Shown: positions 1,402-20,285 of the stretch, one piece after another
How the letters are laid out: each line of letters opens with the position of its first letter
Position numbering within the stretch: the first letter of the stretch is position 1
Assembly: GCF_003269295.1 (NCBI RefSeq)
Contig: NZ_QLTT01000001.1
Coordinates: forward strand, 1,011,635 to 1,075,634
DNA: 64,000 nucleotides
Source of the DNA: Lentzea atacamensis
GTDB lineage: Bacteria; Actinomycetota; Actinomycetes; Mycobacteriales; Pseudonocardiaceae
Direction of reading: 5' to 3'
Notes under the pieces: model-generated
The model's input: the letters and a program-made list of their open reading frames with translations, nothing else
What the model was told of the DNA's origin: nothing
Database searches by the model: none
Program-made: the position numbers and the translations under genes

Positions 1402-2112
1402 TCAGACGAGTTGGCCTGTGAGGTGCTCGATCTCGTCCAGGAAGGCCGACACGACGCCCGCGGGATCGGCGCTGCGGGTGATCGAGCTGCCGGCGACGAT
1501 GGCGAAGAGGCTGTCGTCGGTCGCGTACTGGCGCAGTTCGACTACGTTGCCGGGTTTGAGGCCGCCCATGGCGATGATCTTGGCCTGGGTGCCGTGCAGG
1601 GCATGGTGTACCTGTGGCAGGAGCGCGTCGGCGGTCTTGCCCTGTGCCTGCTCGCTCCAGCCGACGTGGCAGCTGACCAGCTCGGCGCCCATGCCGGCGA
1701 GTTTGCGGGCGCGACGGGCCTTGGCGCGGTCGTCCTGGTGGGACATCAGGTCGAAGGCGACCAGTTTCCCCTCGGCGCGTGCGCCGTCGACCGCTTCGAT
1801 GATCGCCTCGTCCGGCGCGGTAGCCATCACGGTCACCAGGTCGGCGCCCGCGGCGTAGTAGAACGTGCCTTCGGCCACGTAGGGCACGTCGTATCCCTTG
1901 AAGTCGGCGACCAGCAGCTGGCCGTTGTCCAGCCGGTCGCGGAACTCTCGGACGATGGGGACGCCGGCCAGGGCGGCGTTCAGGATCGTCGGCCGCCCGA
2001 TCTCGTGAATGATCTCCTGTTCCGGGTGCGCGGCCAGTACAGTGTCGAGCATGTCGAGGCATTCGCTCGGCGAGGTGAAGTCGTAGGCGATCCATAGACG
2101 TGGGCTTCGCAT
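1402..2112 (-). CDS. hxlA: 3-hexulose-6-phosphate synthase family protein
   Basis: The 236-residue protein belongs to the orotidine-decarboxylase suprafamily that includes hexulose-6-phosphate synthase (formaldehyde plus ribulose 5-phosphate) and 3-keto-L-gulonate-6-phosphate decarboxylase. The suprafamily DxKxxD motif is present as DFKGYD near residue 66, followed by the phosphate-binding end of the barrel (AMGGLKPGN, VAGSSIT). ATG 2112 is chosen because a clear AAAGGAG site precedes it. The gene starts 16 bases after the phosphohexuloisomerase gene stops, so the two form an operon. That pairing favours hexulose-6-phosphate synthase over gulonate decarboxylase. The residues around the metal site differ somewhat from methylotroph enzymes, so the true substrate is inferred. 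Confidence 0.75.
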   Translation of the reverse strand: MRSPRLWIAYDFTSPSECLDMLDTVLAAHPEQEIIHEIGRPTILNAALAGVPIVREFRDRLDNGQLLVADFKGYDVPYVAEGTFYYAAGADLVTVMATAPDEAIIEAVDGARAEGKLVAFDLMSHQDDRAKARRARKLAGMGAELVSCHVGWSEQAQGKTADALLPQVHHALHGTQAKIIAMGGLKPGNVVELRQYATDDSLFAIVAGSSITRSADPAGVVSAFLDEIEHLTGQLV

Positions 2113-2128
2113 GACGTGTGCTCCTTTG

Positions 2129-2806
2129 TCATTCCAGGTTGGCGTGCGCGGCCCACAGGACCTCTGACGTCTTGCCGAGATCACGCGACAACGCGTGGAA
2201 AAGGGCGTCGAACAACAACAAAGTGGATTGCTCGAACAGAGACCCGGCGAACTGGGCCGAGCTCTCCGAGTCGTGATCGTGTTTGCTCGCCGCGGGGATC
2301 GCGACGACCAGTTCGGCGATGGCGGCCAGCGGTGAGGACGGTGTCGTCGTCAGCGCCGCAATCTGCCCGCCGGCCGCCCTCACCTGCTCCGCCACCAGGA
2401 CGACGCCTGGTGTGCCGCCCGACCCGGACACCGCGATGAGCACGTCACCGCGGCTCAATGGCGGTGTGGTGGTCTCGCCGACGACGTGTACCTGGAGCCC
2501 GAGGTGCATGAGCCGCATCGCCGCCATGCGCACGGCCAGGCCGCTACGACCCTCACCGAGCACGAAGACGCGGTCGGCTCCCGAGATCAGAGTGACCAGC
2601 TTCGTGACCGCGCGCCAGCTGACGTCGTTCAGCGCGCGCCGGTTCTCCGACAGAACCAGGTTCGCCGCGTGTTCGAGATGTCCGGGCATCCCCGATCTTG
2701 AACTCGTGCCGGGCTTTCTGTCAGGGTGGGGCCCATTTTCCGGGGACTCGTCGTCTTGCGGCGGTCTCGGCGGACCCGGCACGGTCACGCTCGTTTCGAC
2801 TACCAT
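2129..2806 (-). CDS. hxlB: 6-phospho-3-hexuloisomerase (SIS domain)
   Basis: The protein carries a single SIS sugar-isomerase domain: LGEGRSGLAVRMAAMRLMHLG, then VLIAVSGSGGTPGV, then a C-terminal helix region with SSAQFAGSLFEQSTLLLFDAL. This arrangement is typical of phosphohexuloisomerase, which converts arabino-3-hexulose 6-phosphate to fructose 6-phosphate. From ATG 2806, with GGAG 10 bases upstream, it has 225 residues, including a Pro-rich 38-residue lead. ATG 2692 would give 187 residues, the usual family length, but has no visible ribosome-binding site. It is the first gene of the operon with the hexulose-phosphate synthase and is divergent from the synthase cluster that begins near 3902. 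Confidence 0.78.
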   Translation of the reverse strand: MVVETSVTVPGPPRPPQDDESPENGPHPDRKPGTSSRSGMPGHLEHAANLVLSENRRALNDVSWRAVTKLVTLISGADRVFVLGEGRSGLAVRMAAMRLMHLGLQVHVVGETTTPPLSRGDVLIAVSGSGGTPGVVLVAEQVRAAGGQIAALTTTPSSPLAAIAELVVAIPAASKHDHDSESSAQFAGSLFEQSTLLLFDALFHALSRDLGKTSEVLWAAHANLE

Positions 2807-3091
2807 CTGAAGCCAACTCCAATGCGGTTGAGCGTGTGCGAACTTGCTTTCGCCCACACTTCCTTTGCACGACAGCAGGGCCGCGGTGAGATGCGACAAA
2901 CACTCCGAGTGCGCAGACGTGAGAATCTGACGGACCGCACAGTGACGACGACAACGCTGTCGTGTCCCGAACTTCGCGGTGGTCGTCCGCAGAGAATTTA
3001 CTCTAGAGCTGTGCCACGGGTGAGCCGCAATCACCCAAGCCGGGCGCACGCAAAAACGGACAGTGATATCTCCTGCACCCCGTTACGCCGA

Positions 3092-3901: not shown

Positions 3902-5050
3902 ATGGTTGTTCAGCTCCAGGATCTTTCCATGGAGGCTGTCGGCGAATTTGTCCAGCAACGTTGGGGTGAGTTGTTGGACGAAGTCGGCGCCGGAGCGGCT
4001 GAGCGGTACGCGGCGGGAGAGGCCTTTCCCAGAAAGTATTTGATCCAGGCCGCTCAGAAGAGTCTGCACGGCCTGGCGCTGCCGAGGGAGATCGGTGGCG
4101 AGGGAATGGGTTCGAATGTGTGGGGCCGCGTTCTGGAGGAAATGACCTTCCGATGTGATGAGTCAGCATTTTCACTGGTGGTGAGCATGACTACCAGCAT
4201 CGCGTTCACCCTGTATCAATCCGGGGACGCCCGTTTGATCGATAACTATGTGCGGCCGTTCATGTCCGGAGAACTGGCCGCGACCCTTGCCTTTACCGAG
4301 GACGCCGACTTTTGGTCATGGGGGACAACGCTGACCCGTGACGGTGACGGCGGGGTGTTGTCCGGCAGGAAGAGCTACGTGACCGGAGGACTGATCTCCG
4401 ACGTCTTCCTGACCTACGCCGCCGCGGAACCGGGCCGTCTGGCCGCCTGTCTGGTCCATCGGGACGACCCAGGGGTGCGGCTGATCCCCGCGGAAGGGAT
4501 GGGTTTCCAGTCCGCGGGAATGGCCGTACTGGAGTTCATCGACGTTGAACTCGGCCCGGAACGGATACTGACCTGGACCGACGGGCTGGATCATTCCCAG
4601 CTGTATTTGAACGAGCGCCGGAGCATGCAGGCATCCTGGACCGTTGGCAGGATGCGCGGGCTCGTGGCTCGCTGCGCGGCCAGGCTTCGCACCACGACAC
4701 GGCAGGGCCAGCCCGTCCTTGACTACGCCAACGTGGCTGGTGCGCTCGGCCGGATGCACATGCTCACCGACGTGGCCCAGACCATGACGCACGACGTGCT
4801 GGACCGCCAGGCCCGCGGGGAGACGGATCTGGTCTACGACGCGAAGATCTCAGCGGCCAAGCATTTCTCGGCCGAACAGGCGATGAACCTCGCTCACCAG
4901 GCTCTCCGGGCGTTGGGCGGCCATGCCTACTACGGGGACGAATACTACGGAAGGTATGTGCGGGACTGCGCGGGCCTGATTCCCGCGGGAGGTACCCAGG
5001 ATTCCCTGGAGATCACCATCGGCGCCCTTGTGGCGAAGAACCTGCTCTGA
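3902..5050 (+). CDS. acyl-CoA dehydrogenase-like flavoprotein, catalytic Glu absent
   Basis: From ATG 3902, with GAAGG about 10 bases upstream, the protein has 382 residues, the normal length for acyl-CoA dehydrogenases. The middle domain has the LAFTEDADFWSWGTTLTRDG segment and the C-terminal helical domain is intact (SAEQAMNLAHQALRALGGHAYYGDEY). In typical members the catalytic base sits in an EGT motif near the C-terminus; here the matching stretch is IPAGGTQDSLEI, so the Glu is replaced by Gly. The family normally desaturates acyl thioesters with FAD. The change suggests a modified reaction or a base placed elsewhere. It is the first gene of the synthase cluster, 16 bases before the carrier gene, and probably acts on a chain tethered to the cluster ACP or its CoA form. 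Confidence 0.85.
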   Translation: MVVQLQDLSMEAVGEFVQQRWGELLDEVGAGAAERYAAGEAFPRKYLIQAAQKSLHGLALPREIGGEGMGSNVWGRVLEEMTFRCDESAFSLVVSMTTSIAFTLYQSGDARLIDNYVRPFMSGELAATLAFTEDADFWSWGTTLTRDGDGGVLSGRKSYVTGGLISDVFLTYAAAEPGRLAACLVHRDDPGVRLIPAEGMGFQSAGMAVLEFIDVELGPERILTWTDGLDHSQLYLNERRSMQASWTVGRMRGLVARCAARLRTTTRQGQPVLDYANVAGALGRMHMLTDVAQTMTHDVLDRQARGETDLVYDAKISAAKHFSAEQAMNLAHQALRALGGHAYYGDEYYGRYVRDCAGLIPAGGTQDSLEITIGALVAKNLL

Positions 5051-5066
5051 CAAAGGAGAGTTTCTC

Positions 5067-5330
5067 ATGGAGGTTCGTTTCTCCGGGCTGCTGCTCCGGT
5101 TCACCGGCTACGAGCGCACCGTCACGGTGAAGGCCAACACAGTCGGCAAGGCGCTCGAGTCCTTGCGCCAACAGTTTCCGCAACTGGGTCCTGTCCTGTG
5201 GGACGGCACGGGCAAGCTCCAGCGCGTTCACCGCCTCATCCTCAACGGAGAAGTCATCTCATCCAACGATCGCAGAGCGCTGCGCGACACAGATCGGCTG
5301 GAGTTCCTGACCGCGGTGGCCGGGGGGTGA
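5067..5330 (+). CDS. ThiS/MoaD-like ubiquitin-fold protein ending in Gly-Gly
   Basis: The 87-residue protein starts at ATG 5067 after a strong AAAGGAG site. It has the beta-grasp pattern of MoaD and ThiS: an N-terminal strand (MEVRFSGLLLRFTG), a helix (TVGKALESLRQQFP), a strand (HRLILNGEVIS), the DTDRLEFL segment and the C-terminal end TAVAGG. A terminal Gly-Gly is the residue pair adenylated and converted to a thiocarboxylate in sulfur carriers. No E1-like activator (MoeB/ThiF) or sulfurtransferase lies in this window, so it would have to borrow one. Its place between an acyl-CoA dehydrogenase and hotdog/AT/KS genes suggests sulfur delivery to the lipid product, or use as an unusual protein tag. 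The stop codon overlaps the next start (GTGA). Confidence 0.85.
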   Translation: MEVRFSGLLLRFTGYERTVTVKANTVGKALESLRQQFPQLGPVLWDGTGKLQRVHRLILNGEVISSNDRRALRDTDRLEFLTAVAGG

Positions 5331-6160
5331 CATGCCCCCGCGAGATCGACTACACCGAGCCTGTCGTCACCACCATGTTCAGCCCTCTTCAGCTGCGGCC
5401 GCGAACACTGCTCGGTCTGGTGTCACCATGTCTCGCGCGCTGGTTGGCCGAGTACGTCACGACTTTCCCCGCGATGGTGGAGACCTACCGCAGCGCGGTG
5501 GTGGTCTCCTCACTACGGATCGACTACGCCACTCCCTACCTGCGCTTCACCGACGCACCGTGGCTGACCGTCCGCTCAGGACTGCGCATCGACCAGCGCG
5601 GGGAATGGCTTCAGGTGGACATCGACTGCGTCGCCGACGATCGCTCCGTCGCACGGGTCACCGCCACGATGCGCGTTCTCACGGTGACCGACGCCAGCAG
5701 CCTGGCCGCGAGTCCCGGTGTTCTGCACCCCGATCTCCTGAAGCGGTTCACCCCAGCCGAGACCATGACCGCCGTCCCGCCGCCCCACTCGCGGCCCACA
5801 CTCCCGGCGCCCGTGCTTGCTCCCCAGCACTGGCAGACGTTCATCAGCCGCAGCCACGCCGAGGTCGCCGACCAGTGGTCGTTCGTCGAGATGGTGGAAC
5901 TGGCCACACAGGCCCGCGAGCGCCTGTACGTCGAGAACCTTCACGATCCGCTGCCGTCCTGCCACGTCGTCGGCACACCGACACAGATCCTGCGCGCGGT
6001 CTTCCTGCGCCCGATGTTCGTCTACGACCCGTGCCAGGTCATCAGCTCCGCCCATCTCGATCCGGACACGTCGACGCTGTGCTTCCGTCACCAGATCGGA
6101 CATCCCAGTGCCCCGCGGCCTCACCTGACTGTCTGGGAAACCCTAGATGTCGCCGGATAG
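5327..6160 (+). CDS. probable double-hotdog protein (thioesterase or dehydratase-like)
   Basis: GTG 5327 overlaps the stop of the carrier gene, giving a 277-residue protein. Two similar halves are visible, about residues 20-130 and 170-275, each with a long central helix followed by strands (FPAMVETYRSAVVVSSLRI; FLRPMFVYDPCQVISSAHL), as in double-hotdog thioesterases and dehydratases. No clear catalytic Asp/His/Glu set could be assigned. The position inside an AT-ACP/KS operon fits chain release, dehydration or intermediate hydrolysis. The fold call is inference from pattern only; a purely structural role is possible. Confidence 0.7.
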   Translation: MTCPREIDYTEPVVTTMFSPLQLRPRTLLGLVSPCLARWLAEYVTTFPAMVETYRSAVVVSSLRIDYATPYLRFTDAPWLTVRSGLRIDQRGEWLQVDIDCVADDRSVARVTATMRVLTVTDASSLAASPGVLHPDLLKRFTPAETMTAVPPPHSRPTLPAPVLAPQHWQTFISRSHAEVADQWSFVEMVELATQARERLYVENLHDPLPSCHVVGTPTQILRAVFLRPMFVYDPCQVISSAHLDPDTSTLCFRHQIGHPSAPRPHLTVWETLDVAG

Positions 6161-6180
6161 TCCTTAGCGGAGGTGTTTCA

Positions 6181-7476
6181 GTGCGATCACCAATCGTATT
6201 CCTCTTTCCGGGCCAAGGGGCTTACCTCCCCGGCGCGTTTCGACACCTGGCCGAAGAGCCGATCATCACTGAATTGTTGTCCGAGGTCGACGAGGTGGCG
6301 ACCAGCCTGGGGGCGGCACCTGTCACCACACTGCTCATGAGGGAGGACGCCCCGTCACTGGATGATCTCCTCAGCCGTTCACCGGCTCAACTGCACGTGG
6401 CGATCTTCGCCGCCGAGCTGGCGCTGTACCGGTTGCTCACCCGGCGCCACGGCATACAGCCGGACGTACTGTTGGGGCACAGTTTCGGCGAACTCACCGC
6501 GCTCACCGCGGCAGGCGTGTTCGACCTGCGACAGGGCCTGCGGCTGGTCATCGCCCGTGACGCCGCGTTCGCTGACTGTCCTCCTGAGCCGGGTGCGATG
6601 GTGGCCCTGGGTACGTCGGCGGATCGAGCGCGACACGTGATCGGAGCCGTTGGCCGGTGGGACCTGTGTCTCGCGGCCGACAACGGTCCTCAGCAAACCG
6701 TCGTCTCAGGCCCGGAGGAGGACCTCGGCCAACTCATGCGGGTAGCAGAAACGCTGGGCATCACAGCCAGAAGGCTGTCCGTGCCGTACTCGTTCCACAA
6801 CCCTCGGCTGGCCGGCGTCGCGGAGCGGTTCATCGAGCGCATCCGCGAGCTGACTCCCCGTGTGCCGGTGCGGAGAGTCCATTCCGCCGTCCTCAGCCGA
6901 GACGTGTGCGACTCGACCGACGTGGCCGCCCTGGTCGCCGCACACCTCGTTCGGCCGACCTACTTTCTCGGCGCTGTTCGCGCGTTGCGTGCCGAAGGGG
7001 TCGAGATCTTCCTGGAGTGCGGTCCGCGCGGGACGCTCAGTGACCTCATCGCCGGCTTCCTACCCGACACCACGGTCATCGCGCCGCTGAGACGCCGTGT
7101 CACCGGGCCGGATCTCGACCGCCTGCTGGAACCCGTGCCACACCACCAGGCCAGCATCCCCGACCAGCGCGGCACGACCACTGTCGCCGAACCAGCACCG
7201 GTCCGTGGCAGGGAAGAGCTCATCAGCGACCTGCGCACCATCTACGCCGAGACGCTCGGCTACCCCGTCGAGATGCTCACCGCCGACGCCGATCTCGAAG
7301 CGGACCTGGGCATCGACTCGATCACCCAGACCGAACTGTTCGCCAAGGCCGTCACGGCCAGCAGCCGATCCCTGCCGGCGGACGACAGTGACGTCCGTCC
7401 GACCAGCTTCACCACGCTGAGGGCGTTGAGCGACTTCCTCCTGACGCTTCCCGTCGGCAACAGCGTGACTCGATGA
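6181..7476 (+). CDS. malonyl-CoA acyltransferase fused to acyl carrier protein (AT-ACP)
   Basis: GTG 6181 follows a GCGGAGGTG site and gives a 431-residue protein. Residues 1-320 are an FabD-type acyltransferase: the FLFPGQGAYLPG start, the nucleophile motif GHSFGE with Ser near 101, and the active-site His near 206 in SFHNP. After a Pro-rich linker, residues 340-425 form an acyl carrier protein with DLGIDSI; Ser380 is the phosphopantetheine site. There is only one carrier domain, unlike the tandem carriers of PUFA synthases. The stop overlaps the ATG of the following synthase (ATGA), so the two are translated together. It loads extender units and carries the chain for the KS of the next protein. 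Confidence 0.92.
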   Translation: MRSPIVFLFPGQGAYLPGAFRHLAEEPIITELLSEVDEVATSLGAAPVTTLLMREDAPSLDDLLSRSPAQLHVAIFAAELALYRLLTRRHGIQPDVLLGHSFGELTALTAAGVFDLRQGLRLVIARDAAFADCPPEPGAMVALGTSADRARHVIGAVGRWDLCLAADNGPQQTVVSGPEEDLGQLMRVAETLGITARRLSVPYSFHNPRLAGVAERFIERIRELTPRVPVRRVHSAVLSRDVCDSTDVAALVAAHLVRPTYFLGAVRALRAEGVEIFLECGPRGTLSDLIAGFLPDTTVIAPLRRRVTGPDLDRLLEPVPHHQASIPDQRGTTTVAEPAPVRGREELISDLRTIYAETLGYPVEMLTADADLEADLGIDSITQTELFAKAVTASSRSLPADDSDVRPTSFTTLRALSDFLLTLPVGNSVTR

Positions 7477-10400
7477 GTCCGGCTGACTTCGCCGGAAGAA
7501 CGGTTCTGGTCACCGGCGGCGGCAAAGGCGTCGGCCGGGCGATCAGCCGTGCCTTCGCCCGGCGCGGGGCGCACGTGATCATCAACTACTTCCACTCCGG
7601 GGAGTCCGCCGCACACACCCTCGAGGCGATCGTCGCCGAAGGCGGCTCAGCCGAGCTCATCCGTGCCAGCGTCAGCAAACCTGACGCCATCACCGAGATG
7701 TTCGGTGCCGTCGACCGTGCGCACGGCGGGCTTGACGTCCTCGTGAACAACGCCGCCCGCGGGGTGCTCGGTCCTTGCGAGACGCTCACCGAACAGGACT
7801 GGCAACGTGGCTTCGACACCAACGTGCACGGTGCACGGCGGTGCGCCCTCGCCGCGGCACCGCTCATGCGGCGCCGCGGGGGTGGCGCCATAGTCAACGT
7901 CTCCTCCATCGGCGCCGGTATGGCCCTGGCCAACTACATGCTCGTCGGTGTCAGCAAGGCGGCGTTGGAGGGCCTGACCCGATATCTGGCCGCGGATCTG
8001 GGACCAGGGGGAATCCGGGTCAACACCGCCTCCGCCGGTGTCCTGGACAATCCCACCGCCCACCTGTTTCCGGGGGCGCGGGCACTGCATGAGACCTGCT
8101 CGGCCGCGGCCCCGCTGGCTGACCGTCTTGGTTCGGAGGAGGAACTGGCCGATCTGGTCGTCTTCCTCGCTTCCGATCAGGCCAGTTGGGTCACCGGGCA
8201 GGTGCTCCTGGCCGACGGTGGCCTGTCCCTCGGCCGGGCGATGCTGGCCCCTGGCACACCCCGTCCGGAGCCGCGTGCCCCGCGAGCACCCCAGGCCCCC
8301 GGTCACCAGGAGGACGCCACCATCGCGATCGTGGGCATGGGCCTGCGCGTGCCGGGAGCGGCCGACCCCGAGGAGTTCTGGAACCTTCTCCTCCAGGACA
8401 CTCCGGTGTTCAGCGAACCAGGTGACCGGTTCGACCTGGACACCTTCTGGTCCACCGACCCCCGTGCCGACGGGAAGACCTACAGCAGGGTCGCCGGATA
8501 CATCACGGCGCACGACGACCACCTCAACGACGGCGACTACCTGTCCTGCTGGCTGCGCCACAGTCTGCTGCAGGCACGCGCACACCACGTCATCCGGCCC
8601 ACGGAAAGAGTCGGCTGTTTCATCGGCGCCTACTGCGAAGGCAGCCAGCATGTCGAGCAGTCCCTGCTGGTCGCCGCCGCGACCCACGGGATCGCCGAAC
8701 ACTGGCCAACTCCGGTCACCCCGGAACTGCGGGCGTCGCTGAACCAGGCACTGCGCGCCCGATACCGGCATGCCACCGGCTCCCTGCAACAGCACCTGCC
8801 CTATGCGGCGGCACGAGCCGCACTGCCGCAGGACTGCCTGCTCCAGATCGTGGACACCGCGTGCTCATCCTCGTTGTACGCAGTGGACCTCGGCGTGAAG
8901 AGTCTGGTGGCCGGCGAGTGTGACGTCGCATTCTGCGGCGGCGCGTTCTCGCTCGGTCCCCATTACCAGGTGCTGTTCGCCAGGCTCGGGGGTCTGAGTC
9001 ACCGTGGTGCTGTCCGGTCCTTCGACCGCGACGCGGACGGCGTTCTGTTCTCCGACGGCGCGGGACTGGTCATGCTCAAAAGACTTGACCGGGCTCGTGC
9101 CGACGGAGACCGGGTCCTGGCGGTGCTCGCCGGGTTCGGCGGCGCCTCCGACGGCCGGGGTAAAGCGATCTACGCACCCAACCCTGCCGGCCACCTGCGG
9201 GCTGTCCACCGCGCCCGTGCCGTCAGTTCTGTGCCACCTGAGCACATCGACTGGATCGTCGCCCATGGCACCGGCACCAGAGCCGGTGACGAGGCCGAGC
9301 TGCGGACCCTCGGGGAGTCGACGTCCGATGGCGAATACCCGTGCACATCGAACAAGTCGTTGATCGGGCACACCGGGTGGGCAGCCGGGGTGGTGTCGCT
9401 CATCCACGCCGTTCAGGGCCTTCAACACAGCAAGATCTCCGCACAACGCTGTTTCCAGGAAGCGAGCCGTTCGGGATCGCACATCCCCACTTGTGATCTC
9501 CCACTGCCGGAGCGGCCGGACCGCCCGCGCACAGTGGGCATCTCGGCGCTGGGTTTCGGCGGCACCAACGCCCATCTGCTCGTGCAGGACGCTCCCAAGC
9601 CGGGTATGTCCCCGCCCCGGTCCACACCACGGCCGGCCACCGACCCGGTGGTCGTGGTCGGATGGAGCGCGCACCTACCCGGCGGATGCGACCGGGCCGA
9701 GGTAGCTCGTCGATTGGCCAACGGACTCGCACCCGCGGTGGAGCGTTCCTTCAGTGAGCCTTATCCGCCACCGTCGCACGACGAGGTGCCGCTACCGCCG
9801 GCCACGATCTCCATGATCGACCGCAGCCAACTGATGGCCATGCAGGTCGCCCGCCGGTTCATCGACGAGAACGGAGAGCTGTGGGTCAACGTCAGAGAGA
9901 CAACCGGCGTCATCGCGGCGCACACCGCGGTGCCGGCGGGCTCCGCGGACCGCACGGTCCGCACCTACGCCGCCGACCTCACGGCCTTCGCCAGCACCTG
10001 CGACACGCTTCCGACTGCGCGGTTGTCCACAGCCGTCAAAGGTTTCCTCGACGAGGTACAAGCGCGTTGTGCGCCGGCCAGCGAGAACACACTCGCCGGC
10101 CAGATGCCCAACGTGATTCCAGCCAGAATCGCCAACATCCACGACCTGCACGGTCCCACCATGGTGATCGACACAGGCATCACGTCGGGCCGTGACGCCA
10201 TCACGGTCGCGTCGCGCTACCTGGGCACGGCCGAGCTGGATCTCGCACTCGTGCTGGGCGTAAACAGCGGAAGCGACCCACTGTTCGCAGACGCCTTCAG
10301 CCCGCCCGGCCGCGCTCCGGCTCAGGGCGCGTTTCTCATCGGGCTCGCCCGAGAGTCCGTGGCTCGCCGCGAATCATGGCCGATCCTCGCCCCACTGCCC

Positions 10401-12878
10401 GACCTTCCCGCCACACCGTCGAGCGAGCCGGGCGGCACCACCTATCTCGCCGCGGATGATGTGGTGGAACTGTTGCGGCAGATAACGCGGACCAACACCC
10501 TCGTGATCCCGACGGCCACCACGACCAGTCGCCACGTGCCCAGGTGGCGAGTCAGCGCCCCGGTGCGGTCCACCACACCGCTCGACGCCGACCCTCGACA
10601 CACGGTGGTGATCACGACAGGCGCCGACGCGCCGCTGTTGGAACCCGCGGTACAGGCAGCCGGTTCCCGCTTGCTGGTCGTCCGCCCTGACCAAGCCCCC
10701 GAGGAGACCGTCCGGCCTCTGCACGACGAACCTGTTCACCACCTCCGGGTTGTCGGTTCACTGCACCACGCACCGGCATGGCCGGCACTCGCGGAACCGG
10801 AACTGTTGGCACTTCAGGAAACCACCTTTCTCGCCGTTCGAGATCACCGGGACACGCTGGACACGGGCGGCAGCCTCGGCGTCGTCGTTCGCGCGCCCTT
10901 CCACCGAGAGGCACCGCACCCGCACACCGCCCTGTTCGGTGGTCTGGTCAAGAGCATGGTGTGGGAGCTTCCCGGCTGTCGGTCCACAATGGTCATCACC
11001 GATGACGACGATGCCATGTCCGCATGGCGGATCCTGGCCGACGAAATGAACATCGAACAGGGCATGCCCGTGGTCGCGCACCGCGGTGGTCGCCGCTACG
11101 TCCAACACCTCCACCCCGCGACGGCCACTGCCGGCGAACTTCCGCTGAAACCAGGAGCTGTGGTCGTCGCCACCGGCGGAGCCCGCGGCATCACCTCGGC
11201 CGTGGTCACCAGCCTGGCCCGGCGGGCGCCGCTTCGTCTGTGGCTGCTGGGCTCCAGTCACCTCGACTCCGTGCCTGAGGAACTACTGCGGGCTCGTGAG
11301 GACGAACTGCCATCTCACCGAGCCGCCTACCTCGCCGGACAACGGGAACAGGGCAGGACCGCATCGGTCCGCGAACTCAACAGGCGGTTCGACACGCTGC
11401 TACACGCCAGGGAGTCGTTGCTCACCCTGAATACCCTCAGAGACCTGTGCGGCCCGGACAACGTCCACTTCATCACGTGTGACGTGACCGACCGCACGGC
11501 CGTCCACCACGCCGCCGCCGAGGTCTACTCGGCCGCCGGAGAAGTACACCTGCTGATCAACGGCGCGGGTGTGCACCACGCCGGCCGCATCGAACGCAAG
11601 AGCCTGACCGGCGCGCGCCGAATCCGTGACGTGAAACTCCTGGGATATCACCACCTGCGCGAGGCATTCACCAACCCGGCTCCCCGCTTGTGGTGCAACT
11701 TCGGCTCGATCGCCGGCCTCGTGGGACTGCCGGGAGAAAGCGACTACGGCCCGGCCAACGACTTCCTCAGCGCGGCAGCCTCTGCTTCGGAGCCGGGCAC
11801 CGGAGAGTTCACCATCTGCTGGCCCATCTGGGACACGACCGGTCTCGGGGCGGCGTCCGGGATCGGAGGCCACACCGCAGGCGGCCGACTGAGCCGTATC
11901 AGCACACGAGAAGGCGTCGACCATTTCCTCACCGAACTCTCGGCGCGACAAAGGGCACCGGTATCAAGCCTTCTCGGGCACGCCGAACATCGTTCGATTC
12001 GAGAACAGTTCCCTGGCCACCTCGTCGCCGAAGCGTCTGTCGGTCACTTCCTCGGTACTCCGGACACACGGCGACCCGACCGCATGACATGGCCGTTGGT
12101 CCTCGACCTGGGACACAAACCATACCTACGGAACCACACCGTCCACGGCAGACCGACCGTGCCCGGCATGATGCTCACCGAAATCGCGGTCGAAGCAGCG
12201 ACCATGCTCCTGCCCGGCCATCCCCTCCGTGCGCTACGGGACATTCGCTTCTCCGCGTTCGTCACAGCCCGAACCGGCCCGGTCGTCTATGAGGTAACAG
12301 CGACCCATGTCACCTCGAACGTCGTCACGGTCACGGTGTGCTCACACATCGCAGCACCAGATGGTCAGCGCCACCTCCGCGACAGAGAACACTTCCGGGC
12401 GACCGTGCAGTTGGGCGATTCCCCTGCTCCGCCAGCCACTCCGCCAGCACCCACCGGACAACTGATGCCCGATCCGTTCTCCAGCAACGACTCCACCGTG
12501 CGCGTTACAGGAATCTTCGATACCACACGCGACTGGCGACAGGACGACACGGGACTCCACGCCAGATGGCACCCGTCACTTGACGGCCATGAGGAACTCG
12601 ACTCCCTGGCAATCCCCTCGCTTCTACTCGACGGGCTCATCAGAACAGCGGCGGTGCGACCGACACGAAGCGGCCTGAGGAACACCGCCGTGCCAGTCAG
12701 CGTCGAACAACTCACCGTGTACACAACACACAACGACCGGAACCTCGCGCAGGCCAATCCGACCGGCATCAACCTCAGCTATCAGAACGCTGATGACAGC
12801 TGCACCGCATACACTCCTGCAGGCCTCGTCCTCGCGCGTTTGGACGGCGTCCGGGTAGCCGAAACAACCCCAGCCTGA
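7473..12878 (+). CDS. multidomain lipid/polyketide synthase: ER(FabL)-KS-CLF-KR-DH
   Basis: The 1801-residue protein has five domains. Residues 1-265 form an SDR domain like the enoyl-ACP reductase FabL, with TGGGKGVG and Tyr-x6-Lys in YMLVGVSK. Residues 282-709 are an active ketosynthase, with Cys464 in DTACSSS, HGTGT near 597 and NKSLIGH near 627. Residues 723-966 are a second KS fold with DTGITSG at the nucleophile site, so it is a chain-length-factor-like partner. Residues 1228-1470 are a PKS-type KR (ATGGARGITS, then the SDYGPAND Tyr-x3-Asn motif). Residues 1540-1795 are a hotdog DH, with H-x3-G-x4-P in HTVHGRPTVP. No AT or ACP is present; the upstream AT-ACP protein supplies both. The set supports fully reducing iterative chain synthesis in the PUFA/secondary-lipid synthase style. 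Product unknown. Confidence 0.93.
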   Translation: MSPADFAGRTVLVTGGGKGVGRAISRAFARRGAHVIINYFHSGESAAHTLEAIVAEGGSAELIRASVSKPDAITEMFGAVDRAHGGLDVLVNNAARGVLGPCETLTEQDWQRGFDTNVHGARRCALAAAPLMRRRGGGAIVNVSSIGAGMALANYMLVGVSKAALEGLTRYLAADLGPGGIRVNTASAGVLDNPTAHLFPGARALHETCSAAAPLADRLGSEEELADLVVFLASDQASWVTGQVLLADGGLSLGRAMLAPGTPRPEPRAPRAPQAPGHQEDATIAIVGMGLRVPGAADPEEFWNLLLQDTPVFSEPGDRFDLDTFWSTDPRADGKTYSRVAGYITAHDDHLNDGDYLSCWLRHSLLQARAHHVIRPTERVGCFIGAYCEGSQHVEQSLLVAAATHGIAEHWPTPVTPELRASLNQALRARYRHATGSLQQHLPYAAARAALPQDCLLQIVDTACSSSLYAVDLGVKSLVAGECDVAFCGGAFSLGPHYQVLFARLGGLSHRGAVRSFDRDADGVLFSDGAGLVMLKRLDRARADGDRVLAVLAGFGGASDGRGKAIYAPNPAGHLRAVHRARAVSSVPPEHIDWIVAHGTGTRAGDEAELRTLGESTSDGEYPCTSNKSLIGHTGWAAGVVSLIHAVQGLQHSKISAQRCFQEASRSGSHIPTCDLPLPERPDRPRTVGISALGFGGTNAHLLVQDAPKPGMSPPRSTPRPATDPVVVVGWSAHLPGGCDRAEVARRLANGLAPAVERSFSEPYPPPSHDEVPLPPATISMIDRSQLMAMQVARRFIDENGELWVNVRETTGVIAAHTAVPAGSADRTVRTYAADLTAFASTCDTLPTARLSTAVKGFLDEVQARCAPASENTLAGQMPNVIPARIANIHDLHGPTMVIDTGITSGRDAITVASRYLGTAELDLALVLGVNSGSDPLFADAFSPPGRAPAQGAFLIGLARESVARRESWPILAPLPDLPATPSSEPGGTTYLAADDVVELLRQITRTNTLVIPTATTTSRHVPRWRVSAPVRSTTPLDADPRHTVVITTGADAPLLEPAVQAAGSRLLVVRPDQAPEETVRPLHDEPVHHLRVVGSLHHAPAWPALAEPELLALQETTFLAVRDHRDTLDTGGSLGVVVRAPFHREAPHPHTALFGGLVKSMVWELPGCRSTMVITDDDDAMSAWRILADEMNIEQGMPVVAHRGGRRYVQHLHPATATAGELPLKPGAVVVATGGARGITSAVVTSLARRAPLRLWLLGSSHLDSVPEELLRAREDELPSHRAAYLAGQREQGRTASVRELNRRFDTLLHARESLLTLNTLRDLCGPDNVHFITCDVTDRTAVHHAAAEVYSAAGEVHLLINGAGVHHAGRIERKSLTGARRIRDVKLLGYHHLREAFTNPAPRLWCNFGSIAGLVGLPGESDYGPANDFLSAAASASEPGTGEFTICWPIWDTTGLGAASGIGGHTAGGRLSRISTREGVDHFLTELSARQRAPVSSLLGHAEHRSIREQFPGHLVAEASVGHFLGTPDTRRPDRMTWPLVLDLGHKPYLRNHTVHGRPTVPGMMLTEIAVEAATMLLPGHPLRALRDIRFSAFVTARTGPVVYEVTATHVTSNVVTVTVCSHIAAPDGQRHLRDREHFRATVQLGDSPAPPATPPAPTGQLMPDPFSSNDSTVRVTGIFDTTRDWRQDDTGLHARWHPSLDGHEELDSLAIPSLLLDGLIRTAAVRPTRSGLRNTAVPVSVEQLTVYTTHNDRNLAQANPTGINLSYQNADDSCTAYTPAGLVLARLDGVRVAETTPA

Positions 12879-12936: not shown

Positions 12937-12961
12937 CTTAGATTCAACCGGTCGGAGCAAC
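12937..12961 (+). repeat. left inverted repeat of IS30-family element
   Basis: The 25 bases beginning CTTAGATTCAACCGG match the reverse complement of 14117-14141 at 21 of 25 positions. The pair brackets the transposase gene, as expected for IS30-family terminal repeats. No convincing short target duplication is visible next to it. Confidence 0.85.
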
Positions 12962-12985
12962 AGTGCTGGTTGAGAGTGGGCGTGC

Positions 12986-14134
12986 GTGGTGAGGTTGGGT
13001 CGGCCAGGGATGTCGGATGAGATGAAGGCCGATCTGTGGCGGCGGTGGCGGGCCGGGGAGTCGATCAGCGTCATCTCCGGACAGATCGGCAAGCCGCCCG
13101 GTTCGGTGTTCACTGTCCTCAAACACCACGGCGGGATCGCTCCCGAGCCCCGCAAAGAACGCGCCGGAAGTCTGACCATGGCCGAGCGGGAGGAGATCTC
13201 ACGCCGGCTCTGCGCCGGTGATTCCTACAACGCGATCGCGGCGCTGCTGGGGCGTGCGGTGTCGACGATCAGCCGTGAGGTCAACAAGAACGGTGGCCGC
13301 GACGCCTACCGTGCGACCGTGGCGCAGGAACGGGCGTTTGACCGTGCTCGACGGCCGAAGCAGTGCCTGCTCGCCCGCAGGCCCTCGTTGAGGGAGACCG
13401 TTCTGGCCCTGCTGAAGGAGGAGTGGTCGCCGGAACAGATCGTCGGTCACCTGCGCCTGAACCACGGTGACGACCCGGCGATGAGGGTAAGTCACGAGAC
13501 GATCTATCGGTCGGTCTACGTCACGCGCTGGAAGGTGGTGCCTCGTGAGCTGTCCAAGCGGCTGCGGACGAGCCGCCCGATCCGGAAGAACAGGCGGCAC
13601 ACGGTAAAAGGCCAGTGGCGTTCCCAGATCACTGACGCCCGTCCGATCGAGGAACGGCCCCTGGCGGCGGAGGACCGCAGCGAGTTCGGTCACCTGGAGG
13701 GCGATCTGGTGATCGGGTCGAACAACAGTCAGGTCGCCACCCTGGTCGACCGGAAGTCGCGGTTCCTCACGGTCGTAAAGCTCGCCAGCCGCCACACCAC
13801 CGTGGTCGTCCCCGCCCTGGCCGAGGCATACACCCGCATGGATCCCCGACTGCACGGCACGTTGACCTGGGATCGAGGTATGGAATTGGCTTCCCACAAG
13901 CGTTTCACCGCCGATTCCGGTGTTGACGTGTTCTTCGCCGCGCCGCGTAGTCCGTGACAACGCGGCACGAATGAGAACACGAACAAGCTGCTGCGGCAGT
14001 ATCTGCCCAAGGGGACGAACCTGTCGACGTTCAGCCAGGACGACCTCGACACCATCGCCGCGAAACTCAACAATCGGCCCCGCAAGTGCCTGGGATTTCA
14101 CACACCGGCCGAGAGTGTTGCCTTGACCGGATGA
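12986..14134 (+). pseudogene. IS30-family transposase with internal TGA
   Basis: The frame of 382 codons encodes an N-terminal helix-turn-helix region (SVISGQIGKPPGSV; NAIAALLGRAVSTISREV) followed by an RNase H-like DDE core ([28 protein letters not shown]). Codon 324 (13955-13957) is TGA where family members have Trp in a SPWQRGTNEN-type motif, a TGG to TGA change. After it the frame continues normally to TGA 14132-14134. The stop removes the catalytic Glu at about codon 330, so the short product should be inactive. This is a single nonsense change, not a frameshift. Confidence 0.88.
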
Positions 14135-14141
14135 ATCTAAG
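14117..14141 (-). repeat. right inverted repeat of IS30-family element
   Basis: The reverse complement begins CTTAGATTCATCCGG and pairs with 12937-12961. It overlaps the last codons of the transposase. Confidence 0.85.
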
Positions 14142-16398: not shown

Positions 16399-18573
16399 CT
16401 ACAGCAGCTTGTCCTGCGTGATCGGCAGGTCTCGGACGCGCCGGCCGGTGGCGTGGTAGATCGCGTTGCCGATGGCGGCGGGTACGCCCGTGATCGGCGT
16501 CTCGCCGAAGCCACGTGCGCCCAGCGCGGTGCTTCCGGGATCGGGCTCGTCGACGAACAGCGCTTCCAGTGCGGGAGGAGCGTCCGCGCACACCGGCACC
16601 AGGTAGGTCGACAGGTTGGGGTTGACCACCCTGCCGCTGTTCCGGTCGTAGACCGTGTGTTCCATCAACGCGTGGCCGATTCCCCATGTGACGCCACCGA
16701 TCACCTGCCCGCGCGCGGTGCGGCGGTTCATCACCCTGCCGATGTCGTGGGCTGTGACGACCCGCGTCACGCGGACCGAGCCCAGTCGCGCGTGGACGCG
16801 GACTTCCACGAACACCACGCCGTAGGACAGGCCTGGGAGGTTGGGCCCACTGCCGGTCGCCTCAACCGGCTCACCGGCCCTGCTCACCACAGCGCGGTAG
16901 CTGTCCCGGCGTTGGTGGTTCCGGGAGTGGATCAGGTGACCGTGCCTGGTTTCGACCTCGTCCGCCGGGACCCCGAACAACGGGGATCGCTCGTCGGCCA
17001 CAGCGAGTCCCACCACCGCGTCCCGCGCGGCTCTGGCCGCTCGGTCCACCGGGCCGCTGACGCTGGCGATCGTGGCCGAAGCGGCCGACAGACCGGCGAC
17101 GGGCAGGGCTGTGTCGCCGATGTGCGCCTGGATGACGTCGAGTGGCACGCCCATGGCGTCAGCGACGATCTGGCTGATGATCGTGTACGTGCCGGTGCCG
17201 ATGTCCTGGGTGGCTGTGCGGAGCACGACTTTGCCGTCGACACCGACCGTGACCGAGGCATTGGACGGCATGGCGCCGAAGGTGTGCATCTCGGTGGCCA
17301 TACCCCACCCGACGTACTCGTCGCCGTCCTTCGTCGCGCCCGGCTTGCGCTTGCGCTGCGACCAGCCGAACGCCTGGGAGGCCATGTCGTAGCACTTGAG
17401 CAGGTGCTTGCTGCCGAATCGCTGGCCGGTCTCCTGGTTGAACTCGGTGTGGTTGCGCCTGCGCAGTTCCACCGGGTCCATGTCCAGCGCCCAGCTGAGT
17501 TCGTCGAGAGCGGTTTCCAGTCCGAAGTGGGCTGTCGTCTCCGGCGAACGCATGTAGCTGGAAGTGGCGACGTCGAGCCGCACGCCCTCCTGCCTGACGT
17601 GCACGTTCGGGCAGTCGTAGAGCAAACGTGCCGATTCGCTGGCGTTGAAGATCGCCTCGTCGGTGTTGCTCAGCTGAGCGGTTGTCGTGTCGAGGATGGC
17701 GGTCAGCTTCCCCGCTCGGGTGGCACCGAGCCGAATGTGCTGACGGAACTCCGAACGGTGACCAGCCATCGTGTACATCTGGGCGCGACTGAGCACCAGC
17801 CGGATCGGGCGGCGCAAGACCCGCGCTGCCGCGGCGTTGATGATGGTGTGTGACCAGAGGGGCCCCTTCGCACCGAAGCCGCCGCCCAGATACGGGGCCA
17901 CCACCCTGACGTTCTCGACCGGCAGCGCGAAGACGGCGGCGATCGTTCCCTTGGTGAGGTTCACGCCCTGCGCAGTCTCGTGCAGCGTCAACCGGTCGCC
18001 GTCCCACTGCGCAGTGGTGGCGTGCGGCTCGATCGGGTTGTGATGCCGGGTGGCGCTCGAACAGCGGGCTTCCACGCGGACCTCAGCCCGCGCCAGCGCG
18101 GCTGCCGCGTCACCGCGCTTGATCTCGTTGGGCCGGTTGCGGAACGGTGGTGGCAGGTGCGGTGGTCCAGCCGCGTCGTCGATCACCACTCGTGGCCGCT
18201 CCGCGCGGTAGCGGACGGCTACCAGGGCGGCGGCCTCGTGCGCCTGCTCGACCGTGTTCGCGACCACGATCGCCACGGGCTGACCGACGTGGTGAATCGC
18301 CGTGTCCTGCATCGGGATGAACCCTTTGAGGTAGGGGAACGGCGGCACGGTCAGCCGCGGCATGTCGCGATGCGTCAGCACGGCGACCACACCCGGATGA
18401 GCCAGCGCGGCCGACGTGTCGATGTCCGTCACCTCGCCCTTCGCGACCTCACTCGTGACCAGGAACCCGTGCAGGGCACCGGGAACCGGGTCGTCCGCCG
18501 GGTACCGGGCGGCACCGGTCACCTTGACCCTGCCGTCGACCCGCGCGACCGGGCGTCCCACCAGACCCGTCAT
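16399..18573 (-). CDS. paoC: aldehyde/xanthine oxidoreductase molybdenum-binding subunit
   Basis: The 724-residue protein is the large molybdopterin-binding subunit of a xanthine-oxidase-family enzyme, close in length and layout to E. coli PaoC. Visible motifs include LGGGFGAKG in the cofactor domain and GARGFGETPITG near the C-terminus, whose Glu (about residue 691) is the catalytic base. It would oxidise an aldehyde or N-heterocycle with water as oxygen source. It is the last gene of a three-gene operon with FAD and 2Fe-2S subunits, its start overlapping the stop of the FAD subunit gene. No XdhC/PaoD-type maturation factor lies in the window. Confidence 0.92.
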   Translation of the reverse strand: MTGLVGRPVARVDGRVKVTGAARYPADDPVPGALHGFLVTSEVAKGEVTDIDTSAALAHPGVVAVLTHRDMPRLTVPPFPYLKGFIPMQDTAIHHVGQPVAIVVANTVEQAHEAAALVAVRYRAERPRVVIDDAAGPPHLPPPFRNRPNEIKRGDAAAALARAEVRVEARCSSATRHHNPIEPHATTAQWDGDRLTLHETAQGVNLTKGTIAAVFALPVENVRVVAPYLGGGFGAKGPLWSHTIINAAAARVLRRPIRLVLSRAQMYTMAGHRSEFRQHIRLGATRAGKLTAILDTTTAQLSNTDEAIFNASESARLLYDCPNVHVRQEGVRLDVATSSYMRSPETTAHFGLETALDELSWALDMDPVELRRRNHTEFNQETGQRFGSKHLLKCYDMASQAFGWSQRKRKPGATKDGDEYVGWGMATEMHTFGAMPSNASVTVGVDGKVVLRTATQDIGTGTYTIISQIVADAMGVPLDVIQAHIGDTALPVAGLSAASATIASVSGPVDRAARAARDAVVGLAVADERSPLFGVPADEVETRHGHLIHSRNHQRRDSYRAVVSRAGEPVEATGSGPNLPGLSYGVVFVEVRVHARLGSVRVTRVVTAHDIGRVMNRRTARGQVIGGVTWGIGHALMEHTVYDRNSGRVVNPNLSTYLVPVCADAPPALEALFVDEPDPGSTALGARGFGETPITGVPAAIGNAIYHATGRRVRDLPITQDKLL

Positions 18574-19553
18574 CGCAGACCTCCCAGATCGAGCAACAGC
18601 TCGGCCAGCGCACGCTGCACCAGTTCGACTTTGAACTCGTTGCCCTGCCTGGGCACGGCCTCACGTACGAGCACGCGTCCGGCCTGTTCGACCGTCGCCA
18701 CCGTCAGGTTCTTCCCCCGCAGTTCCGCTTCGGCCTCGGCGGAACGCCAGGGTTTGGTCGCGATCCCGCCGAAGGCCAGCCTGATGTCGCGCACGAAGTG
18801 CCCGCGGAGGTCCAGCGCGGCCGCGACCGAGACCACGGCGAACTCGAACGTGGCGCGGTCGCGCAACTTGAGATACCGCGACCTCCTCGCAGTCGGGTGC
18901 CGCGGCACCTCGACCGCGGTGATGAGCTCAGCGGGCCGCAGAGATGTTTCGACCTGAGGCGTGTCGCCGGGAAGGCGGTAGAACTCACCGACGGGAATCC
19001 GGCGCGCACCACCTGGTCCGAGCACGTGGACCGCCGCGTCCAGAGCCGTCAGAGCCACCGCGAGGTCGGACGGGTGGGTGGCGATGCAACTTTCGCTGCC
19101 GCCCAGCACCGCGTGCCCTCGATTCCACCCCTGCAAGGCGGGGCACCCGCTGCCGGGCACGCGCTTGTTGCACGCCGACCCGGTGTCGCGGAAGTAACCG
19201 CACCTCGTGCGTTGCAACAGGTTTCCGCCCATCGTGGCCATGTTGCGCACCTGCGGCGACGCGGATGCCAGCAGTGCCTCAGCGAGCACGGGGAAACGAG
19301 CGCGGACCGCGTGGTGTTCGGCCACCTGCCTCATCCTGGCCAGCCCGCCGATGCGCAGGCCGCTCGCGGACTCGGTGACGCGAGCCAGGTCGAGCTTGTT
19401 GACGTCGATCAGATGCTGGTGGTGCTGCACCCCGTCCTTCATCAGGTTCAGCAGATCGGTACCGCCCGCGATGAACGCCGCTCCAGGTGTCCGGCCCGCC
19501 AGACGGACGGCTTCGGCGGAGTCACGTGCCGAGGCGTAGCTGAAGGACCTCAT
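18570..19553 (-). CDS. paoB: aldehyde oxidoreductase FAD-binding subunit
   Basis: The 327-residue protein begins MRSFSYASARDSAEAVRL and has the FAD loop AAFIAGGTDLLNLMKDGV and the second flavin segment ASPQVRNMATMGGNLLQRTRC, as in the CoxM/PaoB family. A stretch CGYFRDTGSACNKRVPGSGCPA resembles the extra [4Fe-4S]-binding region described for PaoB. Start ATG 19553 overlaps the stop of the Fe-S subunit gene. It passes electrons between the 2Fe-2S subunit and an external acceptor. Confidence 0.92.
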   Translation of the reverse strand: MRSFSYASARDSAEAVRLAGRTPGAAFIAGGTDLLNLMKDGVQHHQHLIDVNKLDLARVTESASGLRIGGLARMRQVAEHHAVRARFPVLAEALLASASPQVRNMATMGGNLLQRTRCGYFRDTGSACNKRVPGSGCPALQGWNRGHAVLGGSESCIATHPSDLAVALTALDAAVHVLGPGGARRIPVGEFYRLPGDTPQVETSLRPAELITAVEVPRHPTARRSRYLKLRDRATFEFAVVSVAAALDLRGHFVRDIRLAFGGIATKPWRSAEAEAELRGKNLTVATVEQAGRVLVREAVPRQGNEFKVELVQRALAELLLDLGGLR

Positions 19554-20176
19554 CCGCGTACCTCCCGTGCCGCGTCGGCCACCGCGGCGACGATGTTCTG
19601 GTAGCAGGCGCAGCGACAGATGTTGCCGCTCATCCACTGCCGGATCTCTTCCTCCGACCCGGTGTGGCCTTCCCGGATGCACGCGACCGCGGACATGATC
19701 TGTCCGGGTGTGCAACCACCGCACTGGAACGCGTCGCGGCGGATGAACGCCTCTTGCACGGGATGCAGGCGGTCGCCGTCAGCGAGTCCCTCAACAGTCG
19801 TGATGGCGCTGCCTTGGCGCATCACCGCCAGCGTCAGGCACGACTTGATGCGCTCGCCGTCGACGAGAACTGTGCACGCGCCACACTCCCCGCGGTCGCA
19901 GCCCTTCTTCGTACCGGTCAGCGCGAGACGCTCACGAAGCGCGTCCAGCAGCGTGACCCTCGGCTCGACCGTGACGGCGTGCTTGCGCCCGTTGACCGAC
20001 AGGGTGATCTCCATGGCCTCCGCCACGCCCCCGGCCGTCGTCGGTGCGGCTGCCGGCACGGATGAGGCCGCGACCGCGGGCGCAGGCACGAGCGTGGCGC
20101 CGGCAGCGGCCACAGCCGTGGACTTCAGCACGGTCCGGCGCGTGTGGGTCGTCGCAGGGTGAGGTGACTCGGGCAC
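19550..20176 (-). CDS. paoA: Tat-exported 2Fe-2S subunit of aldehyde oxidoreductase
   Basis: The 208-residue protein starts at GTG 20176 after GAGGAG. Residues 11-40 form a Tat signal (RRTVLK then an Ala-rich segment), as in E. coli PaoA. A plant-type 2Fe-2S domain follows with Cys93, 98, 101 and 113, and a second cluster domain with Cys152, 155, 187 and 189. The signal implies that the whole three-subunit enzyme is exported folded. It is the first gene of the operon, facing a divergent TetR gene across paired operator-like repeats. Confidence 0.92.
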   Translation of the reverse strand: MPESPHPATTHTRRTVLKSTAVAAAGATLVPAPAVAASSVPAAAPTTAGGVAEAMEITLSVNGRKHAVTVEPRVTLLDALRERLALTGTKKGCDRGECGACTVLVDGERIKSCLTLAVMRQGSAITTVEGLADGDRLHPVQEAFIRRDAFQCGGCTPGQIMSAVACIREGHTGSEEEIRQWMSGNICRCACYQNIVAAVADAAREVRG

Positions 20177-20198
20177 CGCTCCTCCTCGACTGGATTGA

Positions 20199-20213
20199 TG
20201 TAACAGCGGTACA
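20199..20213. promoter_or_regulatory. operator-like repeat, copy 1
   Basis: TGTAACAGCGGTACA has TGTA and TACA arms around seven bases. A close copy lies at 20271-20285. It sits 23 bases upstream of the Fe-S subunit start, between divergent genes, so it is a likely TetR-family binding site. Confidence 0.55.
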
Positions 20214-20220
20214 AGAAGTT

Positions 20221-20243
20221 GGGTAACGCCGCTAGCGTAACCC
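20221..20243. promoter_or_regulatory. imperfect palindrome between pao operon and TetR gene
   Basis: GGGTAACG and CGTAACCC arms flank a seven-base centre. It lies midway between the two TGTA/TACA sites and may be part of the same control region. Confidence 0.4.
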
Positions 20244-20270
20244 GCCGATCTAACGTCGACAAGCCCGCGC

Positions 20271-20285
20271 TGTAACATCGCTACA
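20271..20285. promoter_or_regulatory. operator-like repeat, copy 2
   Basis: TGTAACATCGCTACA differs from copy 1 at only two positions and ends on the first base of the TetR gene start codon, which fits autorepression. Confidence 0.55.

What the first reader, a model, noticed from the sequence alone, without database searches (positions are those of the whole stretch)
3902..12878. Compact reducing synthase operon with an unusual gene set: candidate new lipid/polyketide pathway
Five tightly spaced genes hold acyl-CoA dehydrogenase-like, ThiS/MoaD-like, double-hotdog, AT-ACP and ER-KS-CLF-KR-DH proteins. Seen directly: domain motifs and overlapping starts. Known: PUFA-type synthases split AT, ACP, KS-CLF, KR, DH and ER over large proteins with tandem ACPs. 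Here everything is in two proteins with one ACP, plus a ubiquitin-like carrier that such systems do not normally have. The product is unknown.
Basis: partly seen in the sequence, partly recalled or inferred. Interest (0 to 1): 0.85.

Follow-up and report, generated by a model that had tools for sequence, protein, structure and literature searches.

The report
Sulfur-carrier trio joined to lipid synthase
A bacterium carries one five-gene operon that joins a compact fatty-chain synthase of a recurrent kind to an uncharacterised three-gene set with a ubiquitin-like sulfur carrier; the three-gene set recurs in other bacteria and may put sulfur onto fatty chains, which is not yet shown.

Summary
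The five genes are there and form one tightly coupled operon, 3902-12878. It is not a conserved five-gene block. The last two genes (AT-ACP; ER-KS-CLF-KR-DH) belong to a recurrent Pfa-like synthase subfamily: nine relatives with the same domain order all have an AT-ACP next door. The first three (ACAD-like, ThiS/CysO-like carrier, double-hotdog "HD") are a separate module. The order ACAD-ThiS-HD is kept in 7 of 7 family-I loci; only the window's has this synthase beside it, though one locus is cut right after HD. A distant version (FAAL, ThiS, HD, ACADs) was found in 10 loci. HD has no Pfam match; its model has the acyl-ACP-thioesterase (FatA/LnmK) fold. All 17 carriers read end in Gly-Gly, and the genome holds one E1 over cut-off. 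The trio's ACAD lacks the canonical catalytic Glu. My reading: the synthase makes acyl-ACP and the trio adds carrier-borne sulfur, most likely at the carbonyl. No product, sulfur transfer or enzyme activity is shown. My paper searches found no description of the trio. Closest known systems are the thioplatensimycin thioacid cassette and FAAL-ACAD-ACAD lipopeptide tailoring.

The parts
3902..5050 (+). ACAD-like flavoprotein (382 aa), gene 1 of the trio; canonical catalytic Glu replaced by Gly363, a Glu (E238) at the alternative position used by isovaleryl-CoA dehydrogenase (that role is recalled)
   Evidence: PF00441, PF02770, PF02771 over cut-off; alignments
5067..5330 (+). ThiS/MoaD/CysO-like small carrier (87 aa) ending Gly-Gly, gene 2 of the trio
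   Evidence: PF02597 40 bits, cut-off 22.5; best PDB match CysO chain 3dwg_C, E 8e-4; start by ribosome site
5327..6160 (+). HD: double-hotdog protein of FatA/LnmK fold (277 aa), gene 3 of the trio; motif R-x-H-x-E-V-A-D-Q-W at 5849-5878
   Evidence: no Pfam match, no NCBIfam match; model pLDDT 88; Foldseek and VIA-align; invariant columns in 15 sequences
6181..7476 (+). AT-ACP (431 aa): AT with GHSFG, one ACP with GIDSI
   Evidence: PF00698, PF00550; motif scan
7473..12878 (+). synthase ER-KS-CLF-KR-DH (1801 aa): ER about 7473-8246, KS 8310-9602, CLF 9630-10607, KR with its N-terminal half 10608-11972, DH 12015-12875 (limits approximate)
12937..14141 (.). IS30-family element bounded by 26-nt inverted repeats, 58 nt after the synthase stop; transposase frame broken (not part of the pathway)

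Best explanation
The operon joins two modules. (a) A compact iterative Pfa-like synthase: AT loads its own ACP, KS-CLF extends the chain, KR, DH and ER reduce it, giving a reduced or partly unsaturated acyl-ACP (inferred from domains). (b) A sulfur-tailoring trio: the carrier is adenylated and thiocarboxylated in trans by the genome's ThiF-family E1; HD, a FatA-fold protein acting on acyl-ACP, brings acyl chain and carrier thiocarboxylate together, most likely by attack of the thiocarboxylate on the acyl thioester (thioacid or S-acyl release in place of hydrolysis); the ACAD-like flavoprotein oxidises or otherwise conditions the chain next to the carbonyl. Shown: gene content, coupling, carrier C-terminus, predicted HD fold, loss of the canonical ACAD base, recurrence of the trio apart from the synthase. 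Inferred: every reaction step and the sulfur-bearing product.
Against: No dedicated E1, cysteine desulfurase, sulfurtransferase or PtmU4-like CoA-transferase among the five genes. The motif region of HD (residues 179-185) has pLDDT under 50, so its active site is not modelled; HD could be a plain thioesterase. The carrier was never shown to be charged. The five-gene joining was seen in one genome only, so the link of synthase and trio rests on this operon plus one genome (S. acidiscabies) that holds relatives of both 1.8 Mb apart; five other family-I sources (four genomes, one plasmid record) hold the trio without a synthase relative.
Confidence: 0.38

Rival explanations
1. Beta-thiolation: the ACAD makes an enoyl thioester and HD, as a hotdog protein, catalyses conjugate addition of sulfur delivered by the carrier, giving a beta-mercapto acyl chain.
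For: Uses all three trio proteins in one scheme; hotdog hydratases add nucleophiles to enoyl thioesters (general knowledge of MaoC/FabZ; hotdog-catalysed Michael addition in isonitrile pathways is recalled). The family-II flavoprotein is fused to a methyltransferase-like fold, with DsyB and the holomycin methyltransferase DtpM among many matches, which would fit S-methylation.
Against: HD resembles acyl-ACP thioesterases more than hydratases. The trio ACADs lack the canonical Glu in 12 of 12 sequences and 11 of 11; the alternative Glu is present only in the window, L034, L035 and L075.
Confidence: 0.2
2. Ordinary lipid tailoring: HD is a thioesterase that off-loads the chain, the ACAD desaturates it, and the carrier serves a side role unrelated to the product.
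For: HD has the fold of hydrolytic acyl-ACP thioesterases; Pfam finds no thioesterase domain in genes 4 and 5; the window's ACAD has Glu at the alternative base position.
Against: The carrier lies next to HD in all 17 loci seen, in two distant gene-cluster types, which speaks for a joint function.
Confidence: 0.2
3. Chance joining of two unrelated units: the synthase came to lie behind a free-standing trio by rearrangement, and the two make different things.
For: The five-gene order was seen in one genome only; trio and synthase occur apart elsewhere; an IS30 element lies 58 nt downstream.
Against: 20-nt gap with a GGAGG site between HD and AT-ACP, all five genes collinear. S. acidiscabies holds close relatives of both units (trio 77/68/65%; synthase 69 to 42% by domain), though 1.8 Mb apart.
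Confidence: 0.2

Closest known systems
Pfa / PUFA-type secondary lipid synthases (Shulse and Allen 2011, PMC3098273; abstract and passages seen)
   Same: KS-CLF pair, KR, DH, AT, ACP and ER in an operon-coded iterative synthase; that survey does not exclude single-ACP clusters
   Different: ER is a fused FabL-like SDR, not a separate PfaD; one ACP on an AT-ACP protein; below the TIGR02813 PfaA cut-off
Thioacid cassette PtmA3/PtmU4 of thioplatensimycin (PMC6006322; abstract and passages seen)
   Same: Acyl activation plus a sulfur-carrier protein as donor (proposed here, shown there)
   Different: No type III CoA-transferase among the five genes; a FatA-fold protein would take that place; the substrate would be an alkyl acyl-ACP
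FAAL-ACAD-ACAD-ACP lipid tailoring of rotihibin, likened there to ramoplanin (PMC8552735; passages seen)
   Same: Family II of the trio has FAAL and two ACADs, with NRPS domains near one locus
   Different: No carrier or HD among the rotihibin genes in the table seen; ACAD2 lacks the Glu and bears a methyltransferase-like fold
CysO of Mycobacterium tuberculosis (PDB 3dwg)
   Same: Nearest solved relative of the carrier
   Different: Weak match (E 8e-4); no cysteine-synthase-like partner among the five genes
LnmK (leinamycin) and FatA/FatB acyl-ACP thioesterases
   Same: Double-hotdog fold of HD
   Different: About 7-13% identity; HD has an invariant R-x-H-x-E-V-A-D-Q-W where FatA-type enzymes have a D-x-N-x-H motif (recalled, not from a call)

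Membership tests
Pfa/PUFA-type secondary lipid synthase | KS plus CLF, KR, ACP, AT and DH in one cluster | tested here: met
Pfa/PUFA-type secondary lipid synthase | tandem ACPs (usual, not required by PMC3098273) | tested here: not met
   one GIDSI motif in the window; one motif in 7 of 8 related AT-ACP proteins scanned, none matched in the eighth, L027
Pfa/PUFA-type secondary lipid synthase | PfaA model TIGR02813 over its curated cut-off | tested here: not met
   237.5 bits against 1010.1
Pfa/PUFA-type secondary lipid synthase | KS groups with PfaA in a tree | not tested
   no reference PfaA sequences were fetched
ThiS/MoaD/CysO sulfur carriers | ThiS-family domain over Pfam cut-off | tested here: met
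   PF02597 40 bits, cut-off 22.5
ThiS/MoaD/CysO sulfur carriers | free C-terminal Gly-Gly | tested here: met
   window; 16 relatives
ThiS/MoaD/CysO sulfur carriers | thiocarboxylation by an E1 | not testable with these tools
   one ThiF-family E1 over cut-off exists in the genome
Acyl-CoA dehydrogenase family | ACAD domains over Pfam cut-offs | tested here: met
Acyl-CoA dehydrogenase family | catalytic Glu at the canonical (Y-E-G-T) position | tested here: not met
   Gly363 in the window; Gly, Ala or Gln in the trio ACADs aligned; Glu in 3 of 3 ACAD1 sequences. The nearest solved ACADs (3oib, 3r7k) also have Gly there, so this alone does not exclude a dehydrogenase
Thioacid cassette (PtmA3/PtmU4) | type III CoA-transferase next to an acyl-CoA synthetase | tested here: not met
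   neither is among the five genes
FatA/FatB-type acyl-ACP thioesterase | double-hotdog fold | tested here: met
   predicted model
FatA/FatB-type acyl-ACP thioesterase | catalytic residues of the hydrolase | tested here: inconclusive
   residues 179-185 have pLDDT under 50; a profile search gave only weak YbaW/YbgC matches to the N-terminal half (best E 0.0033)

The most novel reading that the evidence does not exclude
The trio is a new kind of acyl-tailoring unit in which a ubiquitin-like protein is itself the working partner of the fatty chain: a FatA-fold transferase moves the acyl group from ACP to the carrier's thiocarboxylate, the flavoprotein acts on the carrier-bound chain, and thio-lipids are released. 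In family II the carrier would stand where the rotihibin pathway has an ACP.
Probability: 0.12. Interest if true: 0.88.

Novelty: new variant of a known kind. Interest (0 to 1): 0.56.

Why it matters
If the trio adds sulfur to acyl chains it would be a compact, portable cassette for thio-lipids, found both alone and near lipopeptide-type genes, and easy to test because it is three modest-sized proteins. It would also give a first role to a family of FatA-fold proteins with no Pfam entry. If the trio turns out to be ordinary lipid tailoring, the operon is one further member of a recurrent synthase subfamily.

Tried and rejected
Conserved five-gene block: rejected on what was searched. HD was found in 1 of 397 order genomes (the window's own) and 1 of 396 phylum genomes (own), and the carrier in 1 of 24 genus genomes (own). 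None of the six other family-I loci shows this synthase in the DNA held, but L076 ends 129 nt after HD, and L036 has a 413-aa frame with KS and AT stretches (37%, generic PKS-like) about 3.2 kb from HD. Searches of the six other family-I sources (five genomes and, for S. clavuligerus, one plasmid record) found a true synthase relative only in S. acidiscabies; S. indicus, G1028 and the plasmid gave partial 27-35% KR-region matches, Streptosporangium and G823 none at E 1e-15.

The first genome-contig scan, with the whole synthase, confirmed nothing (21 stretches matched a pattern). The second, with HD, used only two short peptide patterns (33 stretches, 14 confirmed), so it will have missed relatives; one search found two more. 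Paulomycin was considered (PMC4425429, passages): it has ThiF-like and desulfurase genes and an ACAD but, by that paper, no ThiS gene in the cluster. Paper searches on the trio's terms gave no description of it (nine paper searches in all). In 'ThiS' also matched the common word; the library holds only open-licence papers, so absence there is weak evidence.

Pfam on the ACAD2 extension gave nothing useful; the fold search gave methyltransferases from a model of mean pLDDT 75 with rmsd of 5.6 or more in the rows shown, so this is a lead only. My gene caller missed or mis-started GC-rich genes, for instance AT-ACP beside L019 and L020; genes were then placed by tblastn. Third-position GC of the five genes is 0.77-0.83, a little below most genes at 42-64 kb but within the range of 15-40 kb: no case for foreign origin on that ground.

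Family II is not uniform: FAAL stands before the carrier in 8 of 10 loci, elsewhere in L044 and L047; L044 has only 78 aligned residues of ACAD1 running into ACAD2; ACAD2 of L042 is cut by the contig end; ACAD2 of L044 and L047 aligned in two pieces. The metagenome collection was not searched.

Full report
What is there. Starts by inspection are ATG 3902, ATG 5067, GTG 5327, GTG 6181 and ATG 7473; carrier/HD and AT-ACP/synthase overlap by four bases, and the other two gaps are 16 and 20 nt. An IS30 element bounded by 26-nt inverted repeats begins 58 nt after the synthase stop.

The synthase. Gene 5 reads ER-KS-CLF-KR-DH. Its first domain has FabL among its best matches (222 bits, below the cut-off of 328) and Tyr155-x6-Lys162, as in all 10 aligned proteins; that this spacing marks enoyl reductases is general knowledge. 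KS Cys464/His598/His633, KR Ser1412/Tyr1425/Asn1429 and DH His1555/Asp1720 are present; the CLF has no Cys. Gene 4 has one AT (GHSFG) and one ACP (GIDSI); its YSFH stretch leaves the extender unit open. In a sample of 60 genomes (own included) 24 matched the CLF-to-DH part at E 1e-20, 15 of them over the KR region only; four genus mates (G003, G005, G011, G012) align over nearly all of it at 40%, and three more have the parts on two genes. All nine aligned relatives with the ER-KS-CLF-KR-DH order (L017, L019-L022, L027, L028, L056, L057) have an AT-ACP match next door. A modular PKS of about 1740 aa lies beside L019-L021. The closest relative found is in S. acidiscabies: ER 69, KS 61, CLF 53, KR 60, DH 43%. 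So the architecture is a recurrent one, also in a Paraburkholderia plasmid.

The trio. HD was the key because it has no Pfam or NCBIfam match. A plasmid search found it in S. clavuligerus (36%), where ACAD (42%) and carrier (48%) precede it and none of the window's synthase domains was matched in the 41 kb held. A scan of genome contigs (84,980 species by the tool's text; two peptide patterns) gave 14 loci. Family I there: S. acidiscabies (ACAD/ThiS/HD 77/68/65%), S. indicus (74/64/56), Streptosporangium violaceochromogenes (44/45/47). A search of 392 Streptomyces genomes had 7 hits, of which L075 (77/68/67) and L076 (46/51/48) are new family-I loci, three are loci already held and two are partial. 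With the window and S. clavuligerus that makes 7 loci, all ACAD-ThiS-HD. Apart from the trio, neighbouring frames share only scattered matches. A true relative of the synthase was found only in S. acidiscabies, 1.8 Mb from its trio; a second, more distant one (38%) lies 0.8 Mb away.

Family II. Ten loci in Streptomyces and Saccharothrix sp. ST-888 hold ThiS-HD with a fatty acyl-AMP ligase and ACADs, about 64-91% alike among themselves and 22-45% like the window's trio. Nine have ACAD1 and ACAD2 as separate matches; L044 has a shortened version. L038 has a frame with condensation, adenylation, PP-binding and thioesterase domains nearby. ACAD2, the one that matches the window's, has a C-terminal extension whose model matches SAM methyltransferases. 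Rotihibin has FAAL, two ACADs and an ACP in a comparable setting (PMC8552735, passages).

How it may work. The synthase makes acyl-ACP; the trio works on it with sulfur from the carrier. I favour carbonyl chemistry by HD because of its fold, and keep beta-addition as a close rival. The link between synthase and trio rests on this operon and on co-presence in S. acidiscabies. No step is shown experimentally.

Known systems. Shulse and Allen (PMC3098273; abstract and passages, figures not held) list 20 Pfa types, some actinobacterial; I could not match this synthase to a type without their Figure 1. El Arnouki Belhaji et al. 2026 (PMC13291983; abstract, outline and passages) map PUFA-like hybrids; the phrase acyl-CoA dehydrogenase does not occur in that text. 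Thioacid cassette: PMC6006322 (abstract and passages). Paulomycin: PMC4425429 (abstract and passages). I lowered the beta-thiolation rival from 0.22 to 0.20 because the rivals overlap; no other odds changed.

Noticed in passing
window 1402-3049 (-): HxlA/HxlB-like pair of the ribulose monophosphate pathway, divergent from the operon; HxlB is over its NCBIfam cut-off, HxlA is not.
   Followed up: no
window 12937-14141: IS30-family element with 26-nt inverted repeats and a broken transposase frame just after the synthase.
   Followed up: partly
window 16399-20719 (-): PaoABC-like molybdenum aldehyde oxidoreductase operon.
   Followed up: no
window 37450-38781 (-): GH43 glycosyl hydrolase with ricin-type lectin domain.
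   Followed up: no
L041, L042, L043, L045, L046, left part: Beside family II in these loci: a second FAAL, a 4HBT thioesterase, a 98-aa protein that looks ACP-like and a 316-aa protein that looks like a ferritin-fold diiron enzyme (both by eye, on L045 only), an MFS exporter and a PPTase-like frame.
   Followed up: partly
L044 10861-13125: ACAD1 and ACAD2 appear as one shortened frame: 78 residues of ACAD1 run into ACAD2 from residue 108.
   Followed up: no
L019, L020, L021: The related synthase is followed by a modular PKS of about 1740 aa in three genus relatives, so the acyl chain may be a starter unit there.
   Followed up: no
L037 103-942: HD relative in a Caldilineaceae MAG, outside actinobacteria (30%); the contig begins just before it.
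   Followed up: partly
L036 12598-13839: PKS-like frame with KS and AT stretches about 3.2 kb from the trio of Streptosporangium violaceochromogenes.
   Followed up: no
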